The notes below the pieces were generated by a model that was not told the origin of the DNA, ran no database searches, and saw nothing but the letters and a program-made list of their open reading frames with translations. Shown here in pieces: positions 793 through 11,846 of a stretch of 12,533 bases of DNA; the stretch's first letter is position 1; the number at the start of each line of letters is the position of its first letter. The stretch is from Omnitrophica WOR_2 bacterium RIFCSPHIGHO2_02_FULL_52_10 (GTDB lineage Bacteria > Omnitrophota > Gorgyraeia > Zapsychrales > Zapsychraceae), in NCBI GenBank assembly GCA_001805655.1, contig MHGR01000137.1, positions 2,287-14,819 of the forward strand, read 5' to 3'. The position numbers were made by a program, and so were the translations under genes.

Positions 793-2166
793 ATGCCGGT
801 CCAACTAGGAACAAATGAACGGCCTTTACGGGTGGCGATTGTGGGCAGCGGGCCCAGCGGTTTTTATGCCGCCGGAGCGCTCTTAAAAGCACCGGTCAAG
901 GTGGCTGTGGACATGTTTGACCGCCTGCCGGTGCCTTATGGCCTGGTCCGTTACGGTGTGGCGCCTGACCATCCCAAGATCAAGAATGTTACCAGTGTTT
1001 ACAAGAAGACCGCCGAGCTGGAAGGCTTTTCTTTCTTGGGCAATGTGAACGTCGGCACGGACATTGAGGTCAGTGAATTGAAAAAATATTATGACGCGGT
1101 TCTTTTCGCCTGCGGGGCGGAGACGGACCGCAAGTTAGGGATCCCCGGAGAAGATCTCAAGGGCAGCCACACGGCCACGGAATTCGTCGCCTGGTATAAC
1201 GGGCATCCGGATTACCGCGGTCGCGCGTTTGACCTCTCCGGCAAGTCGGCCGTGATCATCGGGCAGGGGAATGTCGCCATGGACGTCTGCCGGATCTTAA
1301 GCAAAACCGTGGACGAACTGAAGGCCACCGATATCGCCTGCCACGCCCTGGAAGCCCTGGCCGAAAGCAATATTAAGGAAATCCACCTGATCGGCCGCCG
1401 CGGCCCGGTACAGGCCGCCTTTACGCCGGTGGAAATCCGCGAATTCGGCGAGCTGGCGGACTGTCATCCCGTGGTCGACCCCAAGGATCTTGAGGTCAAC
1501 CAGGCCAGCCAGGCCGAGTTGGATGCCCCGGACAACGCCCAGCGCCGTAAAAATTACGAAATTTTAAAGAGTTTATCGGCGATGCAGCCGGGGAACAAGC
1601 GCAAGAGATTGATTGTCCATTTTCTTAAAAGCCCGGTTGAGCTGGTTGGCGATAAGGGGGTCCAAAAAGTCATTCTTGAGAAGAATAAGCTTACCGGGGA
1701 GGCCGGCAAACAAAAATCCGCAGGGACCGGGGAAAAAGAAGAGCTCAAATGCGACATCCTTTTCCGCAGTGTTGGTTACCGCGGCATCCCCATCAAGGGC
1801 GTGCCGTTTCACGAATCATCGGGCGTTTTCCCCAACGACAAGGGCCGTATCACCGAGAATGGTCAAGTTGTTCCCGGGCTATACACGACTGGCTGGATCA
1901 AGCGCGGGCCTTCCGGTGTTATCGGCACGAACAAGCCGGACAGTGAAGAGACCGTGGCCAGCCTGCTGGCCGATGCGGGCACGTTAACGCCGTGCGCCCA
2001 GCCTGACACCCGGGCCCTGACCAAAATTCTCAATGCCAAAGGCAAACGCGTGGTCACGTTCCAGGACTGGCTGAAGATCGATGCCGCGGAGATCCAGCGC
2101 GGCCAAAAGGCCGGGAAACCGCGGGAAAAATTTGTCGCGGTGGAAGAAATGATCAGTATTCTCTAA
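793..2166 (+). CDS. fprA: NADPH-ferredoxin reductase, FprA/adrenodoxin reductase type
   Basis: This 457-residue flavoprotein matches the family's usual size (about 450-460). It moves electrons between NADPH and a ferredoxin through FAD in the cytoplasm. Visible motifs are the FAD dinucleotide fold GSGPSG (18-23), the family signature [20 protein letters not shown] (45-64), the NADP-binding [11 protein letters not shown] (157-167), [14 protein letters not shown] (201-214) and the C-terminal FAD-contact stretch [20 protein letters not shown] (367-386). I chose ATG 793 because GGGAGAG lies just upstream and because the longer in-frame start at 733 falls in a repeat element and adds unrelated residues. 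The sulfite reductase downstream has no flavoprotein subunit and needs reduced ferredoxin, so FprA is a logical electron donor; no ferredoxin gene is present in the window. The pairing with SiR is inference from context. Confidence 0.95.
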
Positions 2167-2404: not shown

Positions 2405-2686
2405 ATGAAATTAAAAGTCAACGGTAAAGAGCAGGCGTTCAGCAAAGCTTCCCTGTCCATAAAGGAACTGCTGACGGTGTGCAAGGTCAGCCAGCTGGAC
2501 ATGGTTTCGGTGCAGTTAAACGGGGCATTCGTGAATAAGGAGAATTACCAAGCCACCAAGGTCAAGGAAGGCGATGAGGTCGATTTCTTGTATTTTATGG
2601 GGGGAGGTACATTCGTTGCTCGTTGTTCGTTGCTCGCGAAAAACGAGAAACCACGAGCAACCAGCAACGAGCAACTACTATTATGA
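2405..2686 (+). CDS. hcyS: ThiS/MoaD-like sulfur carrier protein with C-terminal extension (HcyS-like)
   Basis: The first 68 residues form a typical small beta-grasp sulfur carrier, beginning MKLKVNGKEQ and ending in the signature FLYFMGGG (61-68). In this family the C-terminal glycine is adenylated and converted to a thiocarboxylate that carries sulfide. Most relatives stop at or within a residue or so of GG, but here the frame continues for 25 more residues (69-93), and nearly all of that tail is encoded by a heptad hairpin repeat. A protease would have to expose the glycine; the nearby JAMM protein is the obvious candidate, as HcyD removes a terminal alanine from HcyS in Wolinella. AAGGAGG at 2387-2393 supports the start. 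The stop overlaps the metY start as ATGA, suggesting translational coupling. The symbol is assigned from gene context; ThiS or CysO-like naming is possible. Confidence 0.85.
   Translation: MKLKVNGKEQAFSKASLSIKELLTVCKVSQLDMVSVQLNGAFVNKENYQATKVKEGDEVDFLYFMGGGTFVARCSLLAKNEKPRATSNEQLLL
2615..2675. repeat. Heptad inverted-repeat element, copy D, inside the hcyS 3' end
   Basis: The left arm (2615-2636) is tandem 7-mers, two GTTGCTC flanking one GTTGTTC. The right arm (2654-2675) is the complementary series built of GAGCAAC and CAGCAAC. The 22-base arms pair with two mismatches around a 17-base loop. The organisation is the same as in the other elements but the 7-mer differs. It encodes most of the HcyS tail and ends 7 bp before the metY ATG. 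Confidence 0.8.
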
Positions 2687-3921: not shown

Positions 3922-3970
3922 CGTAGGGCGACCAGCCGGGCAACCCTTAGAACAATTTAAAAGATAAGCA

Positions 3971-4106
3971 ATTTTAAGTAACAAGATACAAGGTACAAAC
4001 AAATCTCAATGTTCAAAATTCAAGCCTCAAACGGATAAGTTGGCTGGTTTGGAATTTGAATCTTGGAGTTTGGAAATTGTTATTTGTATCTTGTTTCTTG
4101 TAATTT
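3971..4106. repeat. Heptad inverted-repeat element, copy B (metY-hcyF junction)
   Basis: The left arm (3971-4030) carries ACAAGAT/ACAAGGT-type units. The right arm from about 4051 can be read as consecutive 7-mers such as GGAATTT, GAATCTT, GGAGTTT and GGAAATT, running to GTATCTT, GTTTCTT and GTAATTT. The central ACGGATAAG is shared with copy C. The element ends about 26 bp before the hcyF ATG, and an in-frame ATG at 4063 inside it is not the gene start. Confidence 0.75.
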
Positions 4107-4131: not shown

Positions 4132-4944
4132 ATGGATTTGAACGAACAACAACTAGAGCGCTACAGCCGCCACATCATCTTAAAGGACGTCAGCATCGAG
4201 GGCCAGCAGAAGATCATGGCGGGCAAGGTCCTGATTATCGGTGCCGGCGGCCTGGGCGCACCGGCAGCCCTTTACCTTGCCGCCGCGGGTGTGGGCACGA
4301 TCGGTTTGGTGGACGACGACGTCGTGGACCTGACGAACCTGCAGAGGCAGGTCATCCATTTCACCCCGGATGTCGGCAAGCCGAAGGTGATCTCCGCCAA
4401 GGAAAAGATCCTCCAGATGAACCCGGACGTCCAGGTGGTGACGTATCAGGAATTGGTCATGGCCAATAATATCGAGCGGATCATCAAAGACCGAGATTAT
4501 GATTTTATCATCGACGGGACGGACAACTTTCCGGCGAAATTTCTCGTCAACGACGCCTGCGTGTTCCTGAAAAAGCCGTATTCGCACGGCGGCATTTTGC
4601 GGTTTGACGGGCAGACCATGACCTACACGCCGGGCAATGCCTGCTACCGCTGCATTTTCGGTTTTATGCCGTCGCTCAATGCCGTGCCGTCATGTTCCCA
4701 GGCGGGCGTATTGGGGGCCATCGCGGGGATGTTAGGCACCATCCAGGCGGCCGAGACGTTGAAGTATCTGGTCGGCAAAGGTGAGCTGTTGACGAACCGT
4801 TTGCTGATCTTTAACGCCTGGAACATGGATTTCCGCACGGTCAAGGTCAAGAAAAACCCGGATTGCCCGGTCTGCGGCAAAAAACCGACGATCACAAAAC
4901 TGGTTGATGAAGAGCAGAAAGCCTGTGATTTGAAGGAAAATTAG
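4132..4944 (+). CDS. hcyF: E1-like sulfur-carrier adenylyltransferase (ThiF/MoeB/HcyF family)
   Basis: This 270-residue protein adenylates the C-terminal glycine of a ThiS/MoaD-like carrier so that sulfide can displace AMP. It shows the nucleotide-binding GAGGLGAP (37-44), the DDD acidic patch (61-63), the arginine-finger stretch NLQRQ (69-73), DGTDN (128-132), two zinc-binding CxxC pairs CYRC (171-174) and CPVC (245-248), and SCSQAG (187-192) holding a conserved cysteine. Length and motifs fit MoeB/ThiF without a C-terminal rhodanese domain, consistent with free sulfide from SiR as sulfur source. The start at 4132 has AGGGAAG just upstream; a longer frame from 4063 begins inside a repeat. 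Lying between metY and the JAMM gene it is best read as HcyF, though MoeB or ThiF cannot be excluded by sequence alone. Confidence 0.92.
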   Translation: MDLNEQQLERYSRHIILKDVSIEGQQKIMAGKVLIIGAGGLGAPAALYLAAAGVGTIGLVDDDVVDLTNLQRQVIHFTPDVGKPKVISAKEKILQMNPDVQVVTYQELVMANNIERIIKDRDYDFIIDGTDNFPAKFLVNDACVFLKKPYSHGGILRFDGQTMTYTPGNACYRCIFGFMPSLNAVPSCSQAGVLGAIAGMLGTIQAAETLKYLVGKGELLTNRLLIFNAWNMDFRTVKVKKNPDCPVCGKKPTITKLVDEEQKACDLKEN

Positions 4945-4948
4945 AAAT

Positions 4949-5099
4949 ATTTAAATCACAAGATACAAGGAACAAGAAACAAACAAATCCCAATACTCAA
5001 ACTCCAAGATACAAACGGATAAGAATCGGTGTTTGGAATTTGATTATTGGTTTTTGGAAATTGTTTGTACCTTGTATCTTGTTTTTTGTAGCTTTAAAT
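4949..5099. repeat. Heptad inverted-repeat element, copy C (hcyF-hcyD junction)
   Basis: The left arm (4949-5020) has ACAAGAT/ACAAGGA-type units. The right arm (5030-5099) reads as 7-mers GGAATTT, GATTATT, GGTTTTT, GGAAATT, then GTACCTT, GTATCTT, GTTTTTT and GTAGCTT. The centre contains ACGGATAAG, as in copy B. The element ends about 10 bp before the hcyD start. Confidence 0.75.
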
Positions 5100-5109
5100 T
5101 CATAATTTT

Positions 5110-5505
5110 ATGAGAATAAAGAAGGATATCTTAGAGCAGATCATAAAGCACGCGCAGGAAGGGGCGCCCATTGAGATGTGCGGCTATTTGGCCGGCCGAA
5201 ACGGCGTCATCTGCAAGCAATATAAGATGACAAATACCGATCACAGCGAAAAGCATTTTGCCTTTGACCCCAAGGAGCAGTTTGCGGCGGTGAAAGACGC
5301 CCGGGCTGAAGGGCTGGAGTTCAGCGCCGTGTACCACAGCCACCCTGCCAGTCCCGCGCGACCTTCCCAAGAAGATATACGCCTGGCGTATGACCCCTCG
5401 ATCAGCTACGTGATCATTTCCCTGGCCGGAAAACAGCCCGATGTCCAATCCTTCAAGATCAAAGATGCCCAAGTCGCCCGCGAGGACATTGAAATCGTCG
5501 AATAA
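5110..5505 (+). CDS. hcyD: JAMM/MPN+ metalloprotease (HcyD/Mec+ type)
   Basis: This 131-residue single-domain protein carries the full JAMM zinc motif: glutamate E22 in IEMCGYL, HSHP (76-79), S86 and D89, spaced as HxH-x7-S-x2-D. Relatives cut next to the terminal glycine of beta-grasp carriers. Mec of Mycobacterium releases cysteine from CysO; Wolinella HcyD trims HcyS-Ala and later frees homocysteine from HcyS. Here it could do both jobs and would additionally have to remove the 25-residue HcyS tail. All catalytic residues are present. I see no Shine-Dalgarno before ATG 5110; the upstream sequence is AT-rich and directly abuts repeat copy C, so initiation may depend on the hairpin region or on coupling. 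It is preceded by hcyF and followed by a separately promoted sir. Confidence 0.9.
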   Translation: MRIKKDILEQIIKHAQEGAPIEMCGYLAGRNGVICKQYKMTNTDHSEKHFAFDPKEQFAAVKDARAEGLEFSAVYHSHPASPARPSQEDIRLAYDPSISYVIISLAGKQPDVQSFKIKDAQVAREDIEIVE

Positions 5506-8225: not shown

Positions 8226-8421
8226 ATATCTGTGTACAATGGTAAACCATTCGAAAGAATGGGGCACAAAGCTATCCCGGTTTCCGACTTTTGGAGGCTC
8301 CGACACTCATGTTTCGCATGAGGTCGGAGTGCCGACCGAAGTGTCGGCATCGGGACTCCGAGTGAAGCGTCGGAGTTAGGGCCCTCGGCCGGTCGCCAGG
8401 GCAGCCAGCTGCCGCAGAAAA
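8226..8421 (+). ncRNA. Cyclic-di-GMP-I (GEMM-I) riboswitch with expanded P3
   Basis: The segment GGTAAACC, a CCATTC-GAAA-GAATGG hairpin (8247-8262, GNRA tetraloop), then GGGCACAAAGC matches the conserved core of the GEMM-I aptamer (GGCAAACC, tetraloop hairpin, GGACGCAAAGC). The 3' core appears as GGCAGCCAGCTGCC (8400-8413). A short P1 can form between TCTGTG (8229-8234) and CGCAGA (8413-8418), with C8413 also adjoining the 3' core. P3 can pair CCGG (8277-8280) with CCGG (8389-8392) and CCGA (8284-8287) with TCGG (8385-8388). P3 normally holds a few tens of bases; here about 125 bases separate the conserved cores, mostly a triple-hairpin repeat. The family binds c-di-GMP and often controls motility and pilus genes, which fits the pilin operon 150 bp downstream. 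Class assignment is strong; continued function is uncertain. Confidence 0.82.
8298..8376. repeat. Triple-hairpin palindromic repeat inside the riboswitch P3
   Basis: Three hairpins lie in tandem. The first is CTCCGAC plus CTCATG paired with CATGAG plus GTCGGAG (8298-8329). The second is TGCCGAC with GTCGGCA (8330-8349). The third is ACTCCGA with TCGGAGT (8355-8361 and 8370-8376). They share CCGAC/GTCGG words, as expected for a dispersed REP-like element rather than riboswitch sequence. Confidence 0.7.
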
Positions 8422-8477: not shown

Positions 8478-8536
8478 ATCCGCCTTCGGCGGATTTCGCC
8501 GAAGAATTAAAAGATACCACGGGTGTGAACCCGTGG
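8478..8536. repeat. Overlapping hairpins before the first pilin gene
   Basis: ATCCGCC/GGCGGAT (8478-8494) and CTTCGGCG/CGCCGAAG (8484-8504) share bases and exclude each other. A separate perfect 8-bp hairpin, CCACGGGT/ACCCGTGG (8517-8536) with a GTGA loop, lies 27 bp before the pilin start. They may be repeat-derived or part of the regulatory leader. Confidence 0.55.
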
Positions 8537-8563
8537 AGCTTCATCAGCAACCGTAGAGACTGG

Positions 8564-9028
8564 ATGAACATGAAAAAACACAGGGTTCATGGGAAAAGGG
8601 GTTTCACGTTCGTAGAATTATTGACCGTTACGGCGATTCTTGTATTCCTCTTTGCGGGGGCGGTGGTGGCCTTTTTTCGCAGTATTCAATTGGCGGAAAT
8701 ATCGCGCAATTCCTCGGCGGCCCTTTTAGTTTTAAAAAATCGCATGGTGCAGATAAGGGACAACCCGTTCAATCAGATCTTTGCGACCTTCAATAACGCG
8801 ACGTTCTCAACGGCAGGTTTAAACGGTATCGGCGTAAGTTATGTGGATAACACCAACCCGAACCTTTACCAGGTCACAATCGCCTTTTGCTGGCAGGAAA
8901 AGAACGGCAGGGTGTTCGGCGAAGATCTCAATCTTGACGGCCAGTTAAACGCCGGTGAAGATCAAAACGGCAATGGTTTTATCGATTCGCCCGTTGAGAT
9001 CACAAGCCTCATCTACAATGGCGGGTGA
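8564..9028 (+). CDS. Type IV minor pilin, PilV/PilE-like
   Basis: This protein of about 154 residues has a short basic leader and a class III prepilin signal, KRG|FTFVELL, with the cleavage glycine followed by Phe and the conserved Glu at +5, then a hydrophobic helix (TAILVFLFAGAVVAFF). It would be processed by PilD and assembled into or primed into a type IV pilus in the inner membrane. The C-terminal half holds an Asp/Asn-rich segment, DLNLDGQLNAGEDQNGNGFID, that resembles dockerin or EF-hand calcium loops, often seen in minor pilins. ATG 8564 and ATG 8570 are both possible; the ribosome site is weak, and the GTG at 8525 lies in a hairpin and was rejected. It is the first gene of a riboswitch-led operon and ends 1 bp before the next start. 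Exact pilin subtype is not certain. Confidence 0.82.
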   Translation: MNMKKHRVHGKRGFTFVELLTVTAILVFLFAGAVVAFFRSIQLAEISRNSSAALLVLKNRMVQIRDNPFNQIFATFNNATFSTAGLNGIGVSYVDNTNPNLYQVTIAFCWQEKNGRVFGEDLNLDGQLNAGEDQNGNGFIDSPVEITSLIYNGG

Positions 9029-9029
9029 T

Positions 9030-9815
9030 ATGCAGATCAGAGGGAATAGAGGGTTTACGTTGATTGAGGCGCTGATGGTTATGGGGATTTTTTCCGTGAT
9101 CATGGGGGCGACCTATTTTGTCCTATTTTCCGGCAAATCCGTCTGGGCGACACTGGATGTGCAGATTCAATTACAGGAAAATTTACGGAACACGATCGGG
9201 AGGGTTTCAAAGGAATTAAAGGAAACAGGGGCCGACGGTAACGGCGTTATGCAATTGAGCATAAGCGATGGGACAGGAGTCAATAATTCGGACGTCATAA
9301 GATTTTCGATTCCCGTATGCGTCTGCAGCAATATTGTCATTGACGCAAACGGGAACGTGGCTCACTGGGGAGCTCCCCTGGCCTGGGGGAAATTAAGCTG
9401 TATCACGGATGTCAATACCATCATTGCGGATTCGGAAGGAAAGGCGGATATTTGCCACCTTCCTCCCGGTAACCCTGAAAATACGCAAGATTTGAGCGTC
9501 GCCCTTAGCGCGGTAAGCGCCCATTTGGCGCACGGCGATTGGGTGGGGACATGCGCTCCCTGCACAACGGACAATAATAAGTTCATTGAATACCGTTTAA
9601 ACGCGGCCAACCAATTGGTCCGGCGGATCTTGAATAGTAACACGGTTCTTGTCAGGGAAGATGTGTTTGCCCTAGGCATTGCTGATTTTCAGGCCAGTTT
9701 AAACGCGGCTCAGGACGTGGTTACGATCGTCGTGACGGCGTCCCGCAACACGATTTTCAACAGGCCGATGTCCAGGACAATCAGCATGGATGTATTTTTA
9801 AGGAATAAAGGATGA
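9030..9815 (+). CDS. Prepilin-type PilW-like minor pilin with CHxPPGNP module
   Basis: This 261-residue protein starts MQIRGNRG|FTLIEAL, a class III prepilin site (cleavage after G8, Glu at +5), followed by a membrane helix to about residue 34. Size and position between a PilV-like and a PilX-like gene suggest PilW. Residues 140-175 contain ICHLPPGNP and, after a spacer, AVSAHLAHGDWVGTC. This cysteine/histidine module recurs in many secreted or surface proteins of diverse bacteria, function unknown to me; two further Cys (97, 99) and C124, C178 surround it. ATG 9030 lies right after the previous stop (TGA at 9026-9028), with GGCGGG upstream. An in-frame ATG at 9018 is possible; one at 8955 would overlap the previous gene and was not used. 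The gene ends 5 bp before the PilX-like gene, so they are one operon. Confidence 0.82.
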   Translation: MQIRGNRGFTLIEALMVMGIFSVIMGATYFVLFSGKSVWATLDVQIQLQENLRNTIGRVSKELKETGADGNGVMQLSISDGTGVNNSDVIRFSIPVCVCSNIVIDANGNVAHWGAPLAWGKLSCITDVNTIIADSEGKADICHLPPGNPENTQDLSVALSAVSAHLAHGDWVGTCAPCTTDNNKFIEYRLNAANQLVRRILNSNTVLVREDVFALGIADFQASLNAAQDVVTIVVTASRNTIFNRPMSRTISMDVFLRNKG

Positions 9816-9819
9816 TGCT

Positions 9820-11523
9820 ATGATCACAAACATACGCAATGAGCGCGGCGTTGCGCTGATGATCGGCCTCACGCTTATCGTTGTGCTGGTGCCTCTCACA
9901 GGGATCATTGTTTTAAGGACTGTCAGAGAGAGCGTGATGGTAAAAAAAGAACGGGATACGTCCAGGGCATTTTTTATCGCTGAGTCAGGCGCGCTGGCCG
10001 GATTAGACAAGCTGGACGGCCTTATTAATACGGACATGGACAATACGCTCAATGCCATGAGCCCCACGACCGTTATCAGCACCGCGTTGACCCATTTAGA
10101 TGACGGAGTGCAGTTTTTACTGCTAACGGTAAAAGAGAATGGTGTGGCCCAATTGACGTTGAATGAAACGCAGGCCGAATATGCGGGCAATAATACCAAT
10201 TTTGGCGATGGGGCGTATCAGTTTAAAATCCTTTTGAGGGAGAAATCCGACCCGGTCACGATCAACTCTGACACATGGGATTTCCCTTATAACTTTCAAG
10301 TCACGTCCATGGGGGTTTTTAACGGCATTGTCAGCAGAATATTGTTGAGCGGGGACTTCACGGCCCGCGTGCAGAGGGACAGTTTCGCCCGGTACGCCCT
10401 TTTTACAAACCAGCAGACGCTGGCGGACGGCACGACCAATGTATGGTTTACGGGCAATACCAATTTTGCCGGCCCCATTCATACCAACGGGCGATACAAT
10501 ATTTACGGCAATCCCAGCGGGACATTCGAAGGCATTGTTACTCAACAAGAACAGTCGGCCAGATTCTACAATAATGGCTCATCGATACTGCTGGACGCGG
10601 ATTTTAACGGGACCAGAGACGTCCCCACCTTTCATGAGGGATTTGACAGAGGGGTTGATGCCATTGCCCTTTCTTCCGAAGTTCAAAAGCAAGATCTGAT
10701 CGATCAGGCGAAAGGCGGAGAAGCATTTCCGGGCAACGGCATCTTTGTCGCCAACAACGGCACAACATTGACGGGAGGCATTTACGTCAACGGGGACAGC
10801 ACGATCAACATGTCGGTGGATGCCAACAATAATGCCGTATATTCCATCACGCAGGGGGGGACGACTAAGATCATCACTGTTGACCAAATCAATAATCAGA
10901 CAACGGTGGATGCCGGGGGGGGCGGGAGCACGGTCTACCAAAGCGTTCCTGATGGGATCGATAACATGGGGTCGATCATATTTGTCGACGGGAATGTGAC
11001 CAGTTTAAACGGGACCGTTCAGGGAAATACGGAATTAACCATTTCCAGCGAGAATGATATTGTTATCGCGGATCATGTCCGGTATGCCGACTATGCCGCC
11101 GCCATAGCCAGCCCGGGAGATCCCGGCTATGTCCCTCCTAACGCGGAAGAGGCCGTGAATTTATTGGGGATCGTCGCGTGGAACGGCGATGTTCGTGTCG
11201 GGACATCCGCCCCTGACGACGTGAATATTCACGGGACGATATTGGCGCAAGGCGGAGTTTTCCGGGTTGATAATTATAATAATATCGGCACGGGCCCAAG
11301 GGGAACGGCGACCTTACTGGGGGGCGCCATAACGGATAATTACGGGGCCTTCGGATTATTTAACGGATCGAGCGGAACATACCTCTCAGGTTATGGGCGC
11401 AATTTTGTTTATGACACACGGATGCAGGGAGGCAAAACACCTCCTTATTTTCCTACTTTGAGCGCTTTTATAGGGTTTTCAAATGATATAAAAGATAAAA
11501 TCGTCTGGCAGGTGGGAGGATAA
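9820..11523 (+). CDS. Large PilX-like pilus assembly protein
   Basis: This 567-residue protein begins RGVALMIGLTLIVVLVPLTG (residues 9-28), a hydrophobic helix, then TSRAFFIAESGALAGLDKL, matching the PilX N-terminal signature (small pilin-like protein with AxxAxxAGl-type segment, no Glu+5 prepilin motif). The rest is a long beta-rich, Asn/Gly-rich region with GPIHTNGRYNIYGNPSGTF (about 224-242), resembling the DUF4900-type domain that follows PilX_N in several phyla, a Gly-rich break (DAGGGGS), and an aromatic C-terminus with TPPYFPTLSAF and KIVWQVGG. Pseudomonas PilX is near 195 residues, so this is much larger and probably surface-exposed. AAGG at 9808-9811 serves ATG 9820. It lies in one operon with the two pilins and the following small gene (TAATG junction). 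Confidence 0.8.
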   Translation: MITNIRNERGVALMIGLTLIVVLVPLTGIIVLRTVRESVMVKKERDTSRAFFIAESGALAGLDKLDGLINTDMDNTLNAMSPTTVISTALTHLDDGVQFLLLTVKENGVAQLTLNETQAEYAGNNTNFGDGAYQFKILLREKSDPVTINSDTWDFPYNFQVTSMGVFNGIVSRILLSGDFTARVQRDSFARYALFTNQQTLADGTTNVWFTGNTNFAGPIHTNGRYNIYGNPSGTFEGIVTQQEQSARFYNNGSSILLDADFNGTRDVPTFHEGFDRGVDAIALSSEVQKQDLIDQAKGGEAFPGNGIFVANNGTTLTGGIYVNGDSTINMSVDANNNAVYSITQGGTTKIITVDQINNQTTVDAGGGGSTVYQSVPDGIDNMGSIIFVDGNVTSLNGTVQGNTELTISSENDIVIADHVRYADYAAAIASPGDPGYVPPNAEEAVNLLGIVAWNGDVRVGTSAPDDVNIHGTILAQGGVFRVDNYNNIGTGPRGTATLLGGAITDNYGAFGLFNGSSGTYLSGYGRNFVYDTRMQGGKTPPYFPTLSAFIGFSNDIKDKIVWQVGG

Positions 11524-11525
11524 TG

Positions 11526-11846
11526 ATGAGGAGTTATAAAAAGCTTGGCATAATAACGTTGATTATTTTCATTTTGCTCGCGTTCGCCGTATATAAAGTA
11601 AACGCCTTGATCCTCAAACAACTCGAACAAGTAGGAACTGTAGAGACACCGGTTTTTGAACCGCCTAGCCAGGGGAATGAGGAGGAGTTAGAACGCGTCT
11701 ATAAAGCGATCGAAGGGATAGTGATCGAAGGTCAGTCACCCCCCGCCGTCATAAAAGAAAAACCGCCGTCCGCCGCCATCCAAAGCCGAAAAAAGGAGGG
11801 GGCTATTTATGAGCCGTCCTCCAACGATCCTATTTTAATTCAATAG
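11526..11846 (+). CDS. Small single-pass membrane protein of the pilin operon
   Basis: I do not recognise this 106-residue protein. It starts MRSYKKLG, a basic N-terminus, then a hydrophobic helix of about 20 residues (IITLIIFILLAFAVYKV), followed by a charged, proline-rich tail (VETPVFEPPSQ, KEKPPSAAIQSRKKE) predicted to be periplasmic. That is the layout of an inner-membrane anchored accessory or assembly protein. GGGAGGA at 11514-11520 is well spaced for ATG 11526; the alternative ATG 11523 overlaps the PilX-like stop (TAATG) and would add one Met. It is the last gene of the operon: a repeat element begins within a few bases after its stop. Confidence 0.65.
   Translation: MRSYKKLGIITLIIFILLAFAVYKVNALILKQLEQVGTVETPVFEPPSQGNEEELERVYKAIEGIVIEGQSPPAVIKEKPPSAAIQSRKKEGAIYEPSSNDPILIQ

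What the first reader, a model, noticed from the sequence alone, without database searches (positions are those of the whole stretch)
2600..2686. Sulfur carrier runs past its GGG end through a hairpin repeat
The HcyS-like frame has no stop after FLYFMGGG. Twenty-five more residues follow, nearly all encoded by heptad hairpin copy D, and the stop overlaps the metY ATG. A repeat insertion seems to have turned a glycine-ending carrier into a precursor needing JAMM cleavage, comparable to ubiquitin precursors and more extreme than HcyS-Ala. The ATGA overlap and lack of a metY ribosome site suggest the extension is maintained for coupling.
Basis: partly seen in the sequence, partly recalled or inferred. 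Interest (0 to 1): 0.85.

Follow-up and report, generated by a model that had tools for sequence, protein, structure and literature searches.

The report
Repeat-coded cap on sulfur carrier
A small bacterial protein that carries sulfur for making methionine ends in an unusually long, probably disposable cap written by a hairpin DNA repeat, and relatives suggest that this cap can be almost anything, even the whole next enzyme.

Summary
hcyS (2405-2686, 93 aa) reads past FLYFMGGG for 25 residues; 61 of those 75 bases are a palindromic heptad repeat, and the stop overlaps the metY start (ATGA). Two metagenome proteins (92% and 86% identical) carry the same cap, so an assembly error is very unlikely. 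Of the 120 best homologues listed (503 found), 118 carry residues after GGG, 89 of them only 1-3; 2 end in GGG. The cap is predicted disordered, and the one JAMM gene detected in this draft genome lies in the operon. In the same phylum the 'cap' can be the whole next enzyme: 31 HcyS-MetY fusion proteins were listed, and all five sampled genomes with the fusion have a JAMM gene two genes on. The repeat family also sits in frame in other genes, twice in miaB, like Rickettsia palindromic elements. Best reading: the JAMM protease cuts after GGG whatever follows, so the cap is nearly free sequence in which a stop-free repeat was tolerated. Cleavage and any benefit (metY coupling) are inferred.

The parts
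2405..2608 (+). HcyS core: ThiS-type beta-grasp sulfur carrier ending FLYFMGGG
   Evidence: Pfam ThiS 4.1e-9; confident beta-grasp body in the AlphaFold2 model; GGG invariant in 36 aligned homologues
2609..2686 (+). 25-residue cap (2609-2683) and its stop codon (2684-2686)
   Evidence: Open frame; same cap in P0001 and P0002; mean pLDDT 52, 49 and 38 over residues 71-80, 81-90 and 91-93
2615..2675 (+). Heptad palindrome: arms 2615-2636 and 2654-2675 around a 17-nt loop
   Evidence: 91% complementary; z = -4.72; related copies in the genome
2683..3921 (+). metY, PLP-dependent O-acetylhomoserine sulfhydrylase type; its ATG overlaps the hcyS stop
   Evidence: Pfam Cys_Met_Meta_PP 7.3e-109; start position matches relatives
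4132..4944 (+). hcyF: ThiF/E1-like adenylating enzyme without a rhodanese domain
   Evidence: Pfam ThiF 3.3e-80 as the only domain
5110..5505 (+). hcyD: JAMM/Prok-JAB metalloprotease
   Evidence: Pfam Prok-JAB 1.5e-26; HSHPASPARPSQED motif; only Prok-JAB match in this draft genome
5626..8049 (+). Sulfite reductase with a C-terminal TusA domain
   Evidence: Pfam NIR_SIR, NIR_SIR_ferr and TusA
793..2166 (+). Pyridine nucleotide-disulphide oxidoreductase upstream of hcyS
   Evidence: Pfam Pyr_redox_2 5.4e-12 for 733-2166; start at 793 chosen by eye

Best explanation
HcyS is made as a capped precursor for the protein-thiocarboxylate route to homocysteine. A palindromic heptad repeat inserted inside an already present short cap and lengthened it to 25 residues. 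The JAMM protease HcyD recognises the folded carrier with its GGG end and cuts after GGG whatever follows, so the cap is nearly free sequence; HcyF then adenylates the exposed glycine, sulfide from the sulfite reductase gives the thiocarboxylate, and MetY uses it. The repeat was tolerated because its heptad is stop-free in every frame, it lies outside the folded domain, and the hcyS stop / metY start overlap was kept. Shown here: the frame, the repeat and its family, the same cap in two other sequences, variable caps in homologues, HcyS-MetY fusions, the conserved operon, the JAMM motif, the predicted disorder. Inferred: cleavage, the order of events, the reason for tolerance. The pathway steps and the names HcyS, HcyF and HcyD are recalled knowledge.
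For: Same cap in P0001 and P0002. Unconserved tails of 1-26 residues after GGG in 118 of 120 listed homologues. hcyS-metY-thiF-JAMM-sulfite reductase order complete in 18 of 20 loci of the phylum, the other 2 cut by contig ends. HSH-x7-S-x2-D in 31 of 31 JAMM frames found, window included. HcyS-MetY in one frame in five genomes, each with ThiF and JAMM next, and 31 such proteins listed in the large set, none with Met near the junction. Disordered cap. In-frame heptad insertions in miaB and at different sites in homologous proteins of G000 and G010. Removing 63 nt leaves GGG-TFLL-stop, with the same TTATGA ending as the short cap of G019. Precedents: capped carriers need a protease (PMC6006322, passages); DRJAMM cleaves MoaD-MoaE (PMC8832034, passages).
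Against: No cleavage data for this protein. 2 of 120 homologues (P0024, P0120) and the CysO-like L212 end directly in GGG, so a cap is not obligatory. The cap changes no faster than the core (1, 3 and 2 of 25 against 6, 10 and 8 of 68), which could mean constraint rather than free sequence, though three sequences are too few.
Confidence: 0.75

Rival explanations
1. The cap and its hairpin are kept because they couple metY to hcyS: the hairpin blocks free entry at metY, which has no ribosome site of its own, so mainly ribosomes that read the cap and stop at ATGA start metY. Compatible with the best explanation; adds selection.
For: ATGA overlap, no Shine-Dalgarno motif before metY (by eye), strong hairpin, cap length unchanged in three sequences, cap changing no faster than the core.
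Against: Overlap without the repeat is common: 9 of 16 unfused loci overlap, window included. The repeat also sits in genes where coupling makes no sense, such as inside miaB.
Confidence: 0.3
2. The hairpin loops out and brings the GGAGG inside the glycine codons (2603-2607) near the metY ATG, so metY is started directly with a split ribosome site.
For: GGAGG at 2603-2607; without the hairpin it lies 14 nt from the ATG. Phage T4 precedents for looped-out ribosome sites are recalled only.
Against: 14 nt is long; translation of hcyS would melt the hairpin; the glycine codons are not generally kept as a ribosome site (GGA is the middle codon in 20 of 50 rows).
Confidence: 0.08
3. The repeat turned a glycine-ending carrier into a precursor.
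For: 2 of 120 listed homologues end in GGG, and one of them, P0024, is 71% identical to the window protein over the aligned part.
Confidence: 0.05
4. Assembly or frameshift artefact.
For: Palindromes are prone to assembly error and the window comes from a draft genome of 137 contigs, 76% complete.
Against: Two further proteins with substitutions in core and cap have the same length and cap.
Confidence: 0.02

Closest known systems
[quoted passage not shown] details recalled)
   Same: ThiS-like carrier, JAMM protease, E1-like enzyme, MetY and sulfite reductase in one operon; carrier made with a C-terminal cap
   Different: The cap is one alanine there (recalled) and 25 repeat-encoded residues here
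Capped sulfur carriers cleaved by QbsD-type JAMM proteases (PMC6006322, passages)
   Same: Residues after GG must be removed before activation; capped MV or C in PtmS2 and PtmS3
Operon class 4e of Iyer et al. 2006 (PMC1779556, passages)
   Same: ThiS/MoaD-like, JAB, E1-like without rhodanese, SirA/TusA domain, sulfite reductase, O-acetylhomoserine sulfhydrylase; the paper suggests that JAB could free fused ThiS/MoaD
   Different: HcyS-MetY and carrier-cysteine synthase fusions and repeat caps were not in the passages read
MoaD-MoaE fusion cleaved by DRJAMM in Deinococcus (PMC8832034, passages)
   Same: A ubiquitin-like sulfur carrier joined to its partner enzyme and freed by a JAMM protease
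   Different: Molybdopterin pathway; cleavage shown there, only inferred for HcyS-MetY and for the window's cap
Rickettsia palindromic elements and other in-frame small mobile repeats (PMC2229807, passages)
   Same: Dispersed palindromes found in intergenic regions and in frame inside unrelated genes
   Different: Rickettsia elements are 105-146 bp single units; here short heptad arrays of about 60 bp or less in the cases read, no shared sequence known

Membership tests
HcyS/HcyD thiocarboxylate methionine operon | ThiS-fold carrier with glycine end and removable C-terminal cap | tested here: met
   Pfam ThiS, GGG plus 25 residues; that the cap is removed was not tested
HcyS/HcyD thiocarboxylate methionine operon | Adjacent JAMM protease with metal-binding motif | tested here: met
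   Prok-JAB at 5110-5505, HSH-x7-S-x2-D; the upstream Glu was only read by eye (residue 22 of the translation)
HcyS/HcyD thiocarboxylate methionine operon | E1-like enzyme, MetY and sulfite reductase in the same operon | tested here: met
HcyS/HcyD thiocarboxylate methionine operon | Biochemical cleavage and thiocarboxylate transfer to homocysteine | not testable with these tools
   Needs protein work
Rickettsia-type protein-coding palindromic elements | Palindrome dispersed in the genome | tested here: met
Rickettsia-type protein-coding palindromic elements | In-frame insertions in genes of unrelated function | tested here: met
   miaB twice, the C-terminus of a 23S_rRNA_IVP protein, a 1992-aa frame
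Rickettsia-type protein-coding palindromic elements | Unit of 105-146 bp | tested here: not met
   The hcyS palindrome spans 61 bp of heptads; so it works like, but is not filed as, a Rickettsia element
Ubiquitin-type fusion precursor | Ubiquitin-like domain ending in Gly followed in frame by another functional protein | tested here: not met
   The window's cap is a 25-residue disordered peptide; the feature is met instead by relatives with HcyS-MetY

The most novel reading that the evidence does not exclude
In these bacteria the stretch after the carrier's GGG is an open evolutionary slot: because the JAMM protease clears whatever follows, the slot can hold nothing, a few residues, a selfish hairpin repeat, or a whole partner enzyme. 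In the window the repeat both fills the slot and, as an RNA hairpin before the metY start, makes metY translation depend on reading the cap: a step between overlapping genes and the ubiquitin-style HcyS-MetY fusions of relatives.
Probability: 0.35. Interest if true: 0.72.

Novelty: new variant of a known kind. Interest (0 to 1): 0.58.

Why it matters
It gives a natural series after one ubiquitin-like carrier (no cap, 1-3 residues, 25 residues, a whole enzyme), in most loci read next to a JAMM protease, so what such a protease tolerates after the glycine becomes directly testable. It suggests why a selfish repeat can survive in a small metabolic gene: the peptide that it encodes is thrown away. 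And it points to natural HcyS-MetY and carrier-cysteine synthase fusions as possible bacterial counterparts of ubiquitin fusion genes.

Tried and rejected
Known RNA families: Rfam at gathering thresholds gave only a c-di-GMP-I riboswitch elsewhere in the window; upstream of hcyS only sub-threshold hits. Heptads special because stop-free: 50% of all heptads are stop-free on both strands in all frames, so this explains tolerance but is not remarkable. Glycine codons as a general metY ribosome site: GGA is the middle codon in 20 of 50 rows (rows include CysO-like loci, and L032 and L190 are one contig). Longer MetY from TTG 2623: relatives' MetY begins where the window's ATG lies. Heptad-pattern hits in FabF and SMC were judged chance. 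Single origin of the 31 MetY fusions: 29 group together and P0148 and P0151 fall elsewhere, but one group is not rejected (p 0.221), so no claim of several origins. Literature: searches listed no paper whose title or opening abstract lines described a repeat-derived carrier cap or an HcyS-MetY fusion; most subscription journals are not in that library, and only passages of the cited papers were read.

Full report
OBSERVATION. The frame 2405-2686 encodes a 93-aa ThiS-family protein. Its glycine triplet is 2600-2608; 25 codons follow (2609-2683), and the stop TGA (2684-2686) overlaps the metY ATG (2683-2685). A palindrome with 22-nt arms (2615-2636 and 2654-2675, 91% complementary) spans 61 of the 75 cap bases. 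The RNA folds far better than shuffles (z = -4.72). The unit is GTTGCTC on one arm and GAGCAAC on the other.

NOT AN ARTEFACT. The protein search listed two metagenome proteins of the same length, 92% and 86% identical, with the same cap. Against the window they differ at 6 and 10 of 68 core positions and at 1 and 3 of 25 cap positions. The window's K in KNEKP is Q in both, which fits a fuller GAGCAAC unit in the ancestor (inference).

WHAT THE FAMILY DOES. The search found 503 homologues and listed 120; all 120 hold F[LM][YF]FMGGG. Two end there, 89 have 1-3 further residues, 18 have 4-7, 8 have 12-15, two have 25 (P0001, P0002) and one has 26 (P0025, an unrelated tail). The first residue after GGG varies widely. 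A paper on thiocarboxylic acid biosynthesis describes capped carriers that need a protease such as QbsD (PMC6006322, passages). The Wolinella HcyS-Ala paper is not held; I know it from citations and recall.

OPERON. The window's order is oxidoreductase, hcyS, metY, thiF-like hcyF, JAMM hcyD, sulfite reductase-TusA. In the 20 stretches taken around the best 20 HcyS matches of other genomes of the phylum (384 genomes searched), hcyS-metY-hcyF-JAMM-sulfite reductase is complete in 18; the other two (L185, L187) are cut by contig ends. HSH-x7-S-x2-D is present in 31 of 31 JAMM frames found in 41 stretches, the window and CysO-like loci included. A Prok-JAB search finds one match in the window's genome (76% complete), the one in this operon.

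FUSIONS. In five genomes of one genus (G122, G183, G169, G345, G249) HcyS runs straight into MetY in one frame of 478-523 codons (stop to stop), with hcyF and JAMM next (Pfam for one of them). A search with the HcyS part of such a protein, limited to fusion-sized candidates, listed 32 proteins: 31 HcyS-MetY of 475-481 aa and one HcyS-ThiF. None of the 31 has a Met in the first 20 residues after GGG. A CysO-like carrier is likewise joined to a cysteine synthase: 12 proteins were listed, 11 with Met directly after GGG. In 15 such loci read as DNA the junction codon is ATG in 6, TTG in 2 and no start codon in 7, so part of these could start internally and part cannot at that codon. Iyer et al. 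suggested that JAB proteins free fused ThiS/MoaD (PMC1779556, passages), and DRJAMM cleaves MoaD-MoaE (PMC8832034, passages). I saw neither the HcyS-MetY nor the cysteine synthase fusion in the passages read.

THE REPEAT. Exact hits to GAGCAACNAGCAAC: G000 7, G010 11, G015 16, the other 34 genomes 2; reversed control 2, 0, 1 and 4. In 258,531 bases of G000, period 7 gives 11 arrays at score 12 or more, against 2 at period 6, 4 at period 14 and 0 at the other 15 periods from 4 to 21; 7 of those 20 contigs were chosen for repeat hits and an eighth is the window's own, so the density is biased upward. Of 11 G000 places read, four lie in frame inside or at the end of a gene: miaB twice, the C-terminus of a 23S_rRNA_IVP protein, and a 1992-aa frame. 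The two miaB stretches face gaps of 13 and 9 residues in the alignment to MiaB of known structure. FabF and SMC hits were set aside as chance; the rest are intergenic, at gene edges or in doubtful frames. In G010 a protein 49% identical to part of the 1992-aa frame has the heptad peptide at a different site. Of 23 relatives' loci read (21 places), four places lie inside or at the start of a gene-sized frame (L123/L125, L129/L131, L133, L142). Other, A/T-rich heptad hairpins lie before the oxidoreductase, between metY and hcyF and between hcyF and hcyD in the window, and similar ones are seen by eye in two gaps of G019's operon.

WHY TOLERATED. A repeated heptad reads as the same seven residues in any frame; GAGCAAC is stop-free on both strands, as are 50% of heptads. 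The AlphaFold2 model (36 sequences, mean pLDDT 78.5) has a confident beta-grasp body and a disordered cap. Cutting 63 nt around the palindrome leaves GGG-TFLL-stop with the same TTATGA ending as G019's GGG-AHIFSL-stop; cuts of 61 and 62 nt give other frames. The 63-nt view is a plausible, not a proven, empty state.

COUPLING. Of 16 unfused hcyS-metY pairs of the phylum, window included, 9 overlap and 7 are separated by 12-208 nt; for L178, L187 and L192 I read the overlap by eye. Overlap is thus ordinary; the long hairpin cap is not. With no ribosome site before metY, coupling is plausible but untested.

LIMITS. The 68-column tree does not separate the three repeat-capped sequences from three short-capped ones and does not reject one origin (p 0.467). 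Constraint on the cap was not measured at DNA level. Cleavage is by analogy throughout.

VERDICT. Real and correctly spotted; the precursor idea is right but older than the repeat. A new variant of capped, JAMM-processed carriers, made by a heptad palindrome that behaves like protein-coding palindromic elements.

Noticed in passing
L173:8144-9580, and L174, L175, L176, L177: HcyS and MetY fused in one frame with no start codon at the junction, hcyF and JAMM next; 31 such proteins listed in the large protein set.
   Followed up: yes
L195:4888-6021 (- strand) and others among L193-L209: CysO-like carrier joined in frame to a cysteine synthase (PALP), 16 of 20 loci with both parts matched in one frame; junction codon is a start codon in 8 of 15 read.
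   Followed up: partly
L100:8817-10241: miaB of the window's genome carries two in-frame heptad-repeat insertions.
   Followed up: partly
L101:7617-13592 (- strand) and L129:918-3014: A 1992-aa frame with phosphoglycerate kinase, histidine phosphatase and UDPGP domains; it and its G010 homologue carry heptad peptides at different sites.
   Followed up: partly
8231-8288: c-di-GMP-I riboswitch above the gathering score, upstream of frames at 8525-11846 that look pilin-like by eye.
   Followed up: no
624-773, 3964-4106, 4953-5101: A/T-rich heptad hairpins at three other gene junctions of the operon.
   Followed up: partly
2230-2273: A palindrome upstream of hcyS (arms 2230-2247 and 2256-2273) with no Rfam family at threshold; unexplained.
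   Followed up: partly
L050: A contig labelled Ectothiorhodospiraceae carries a partial MetY 82% identical to the window's and a cap-less HcyS; possibly misbinned.
   Followed up: no
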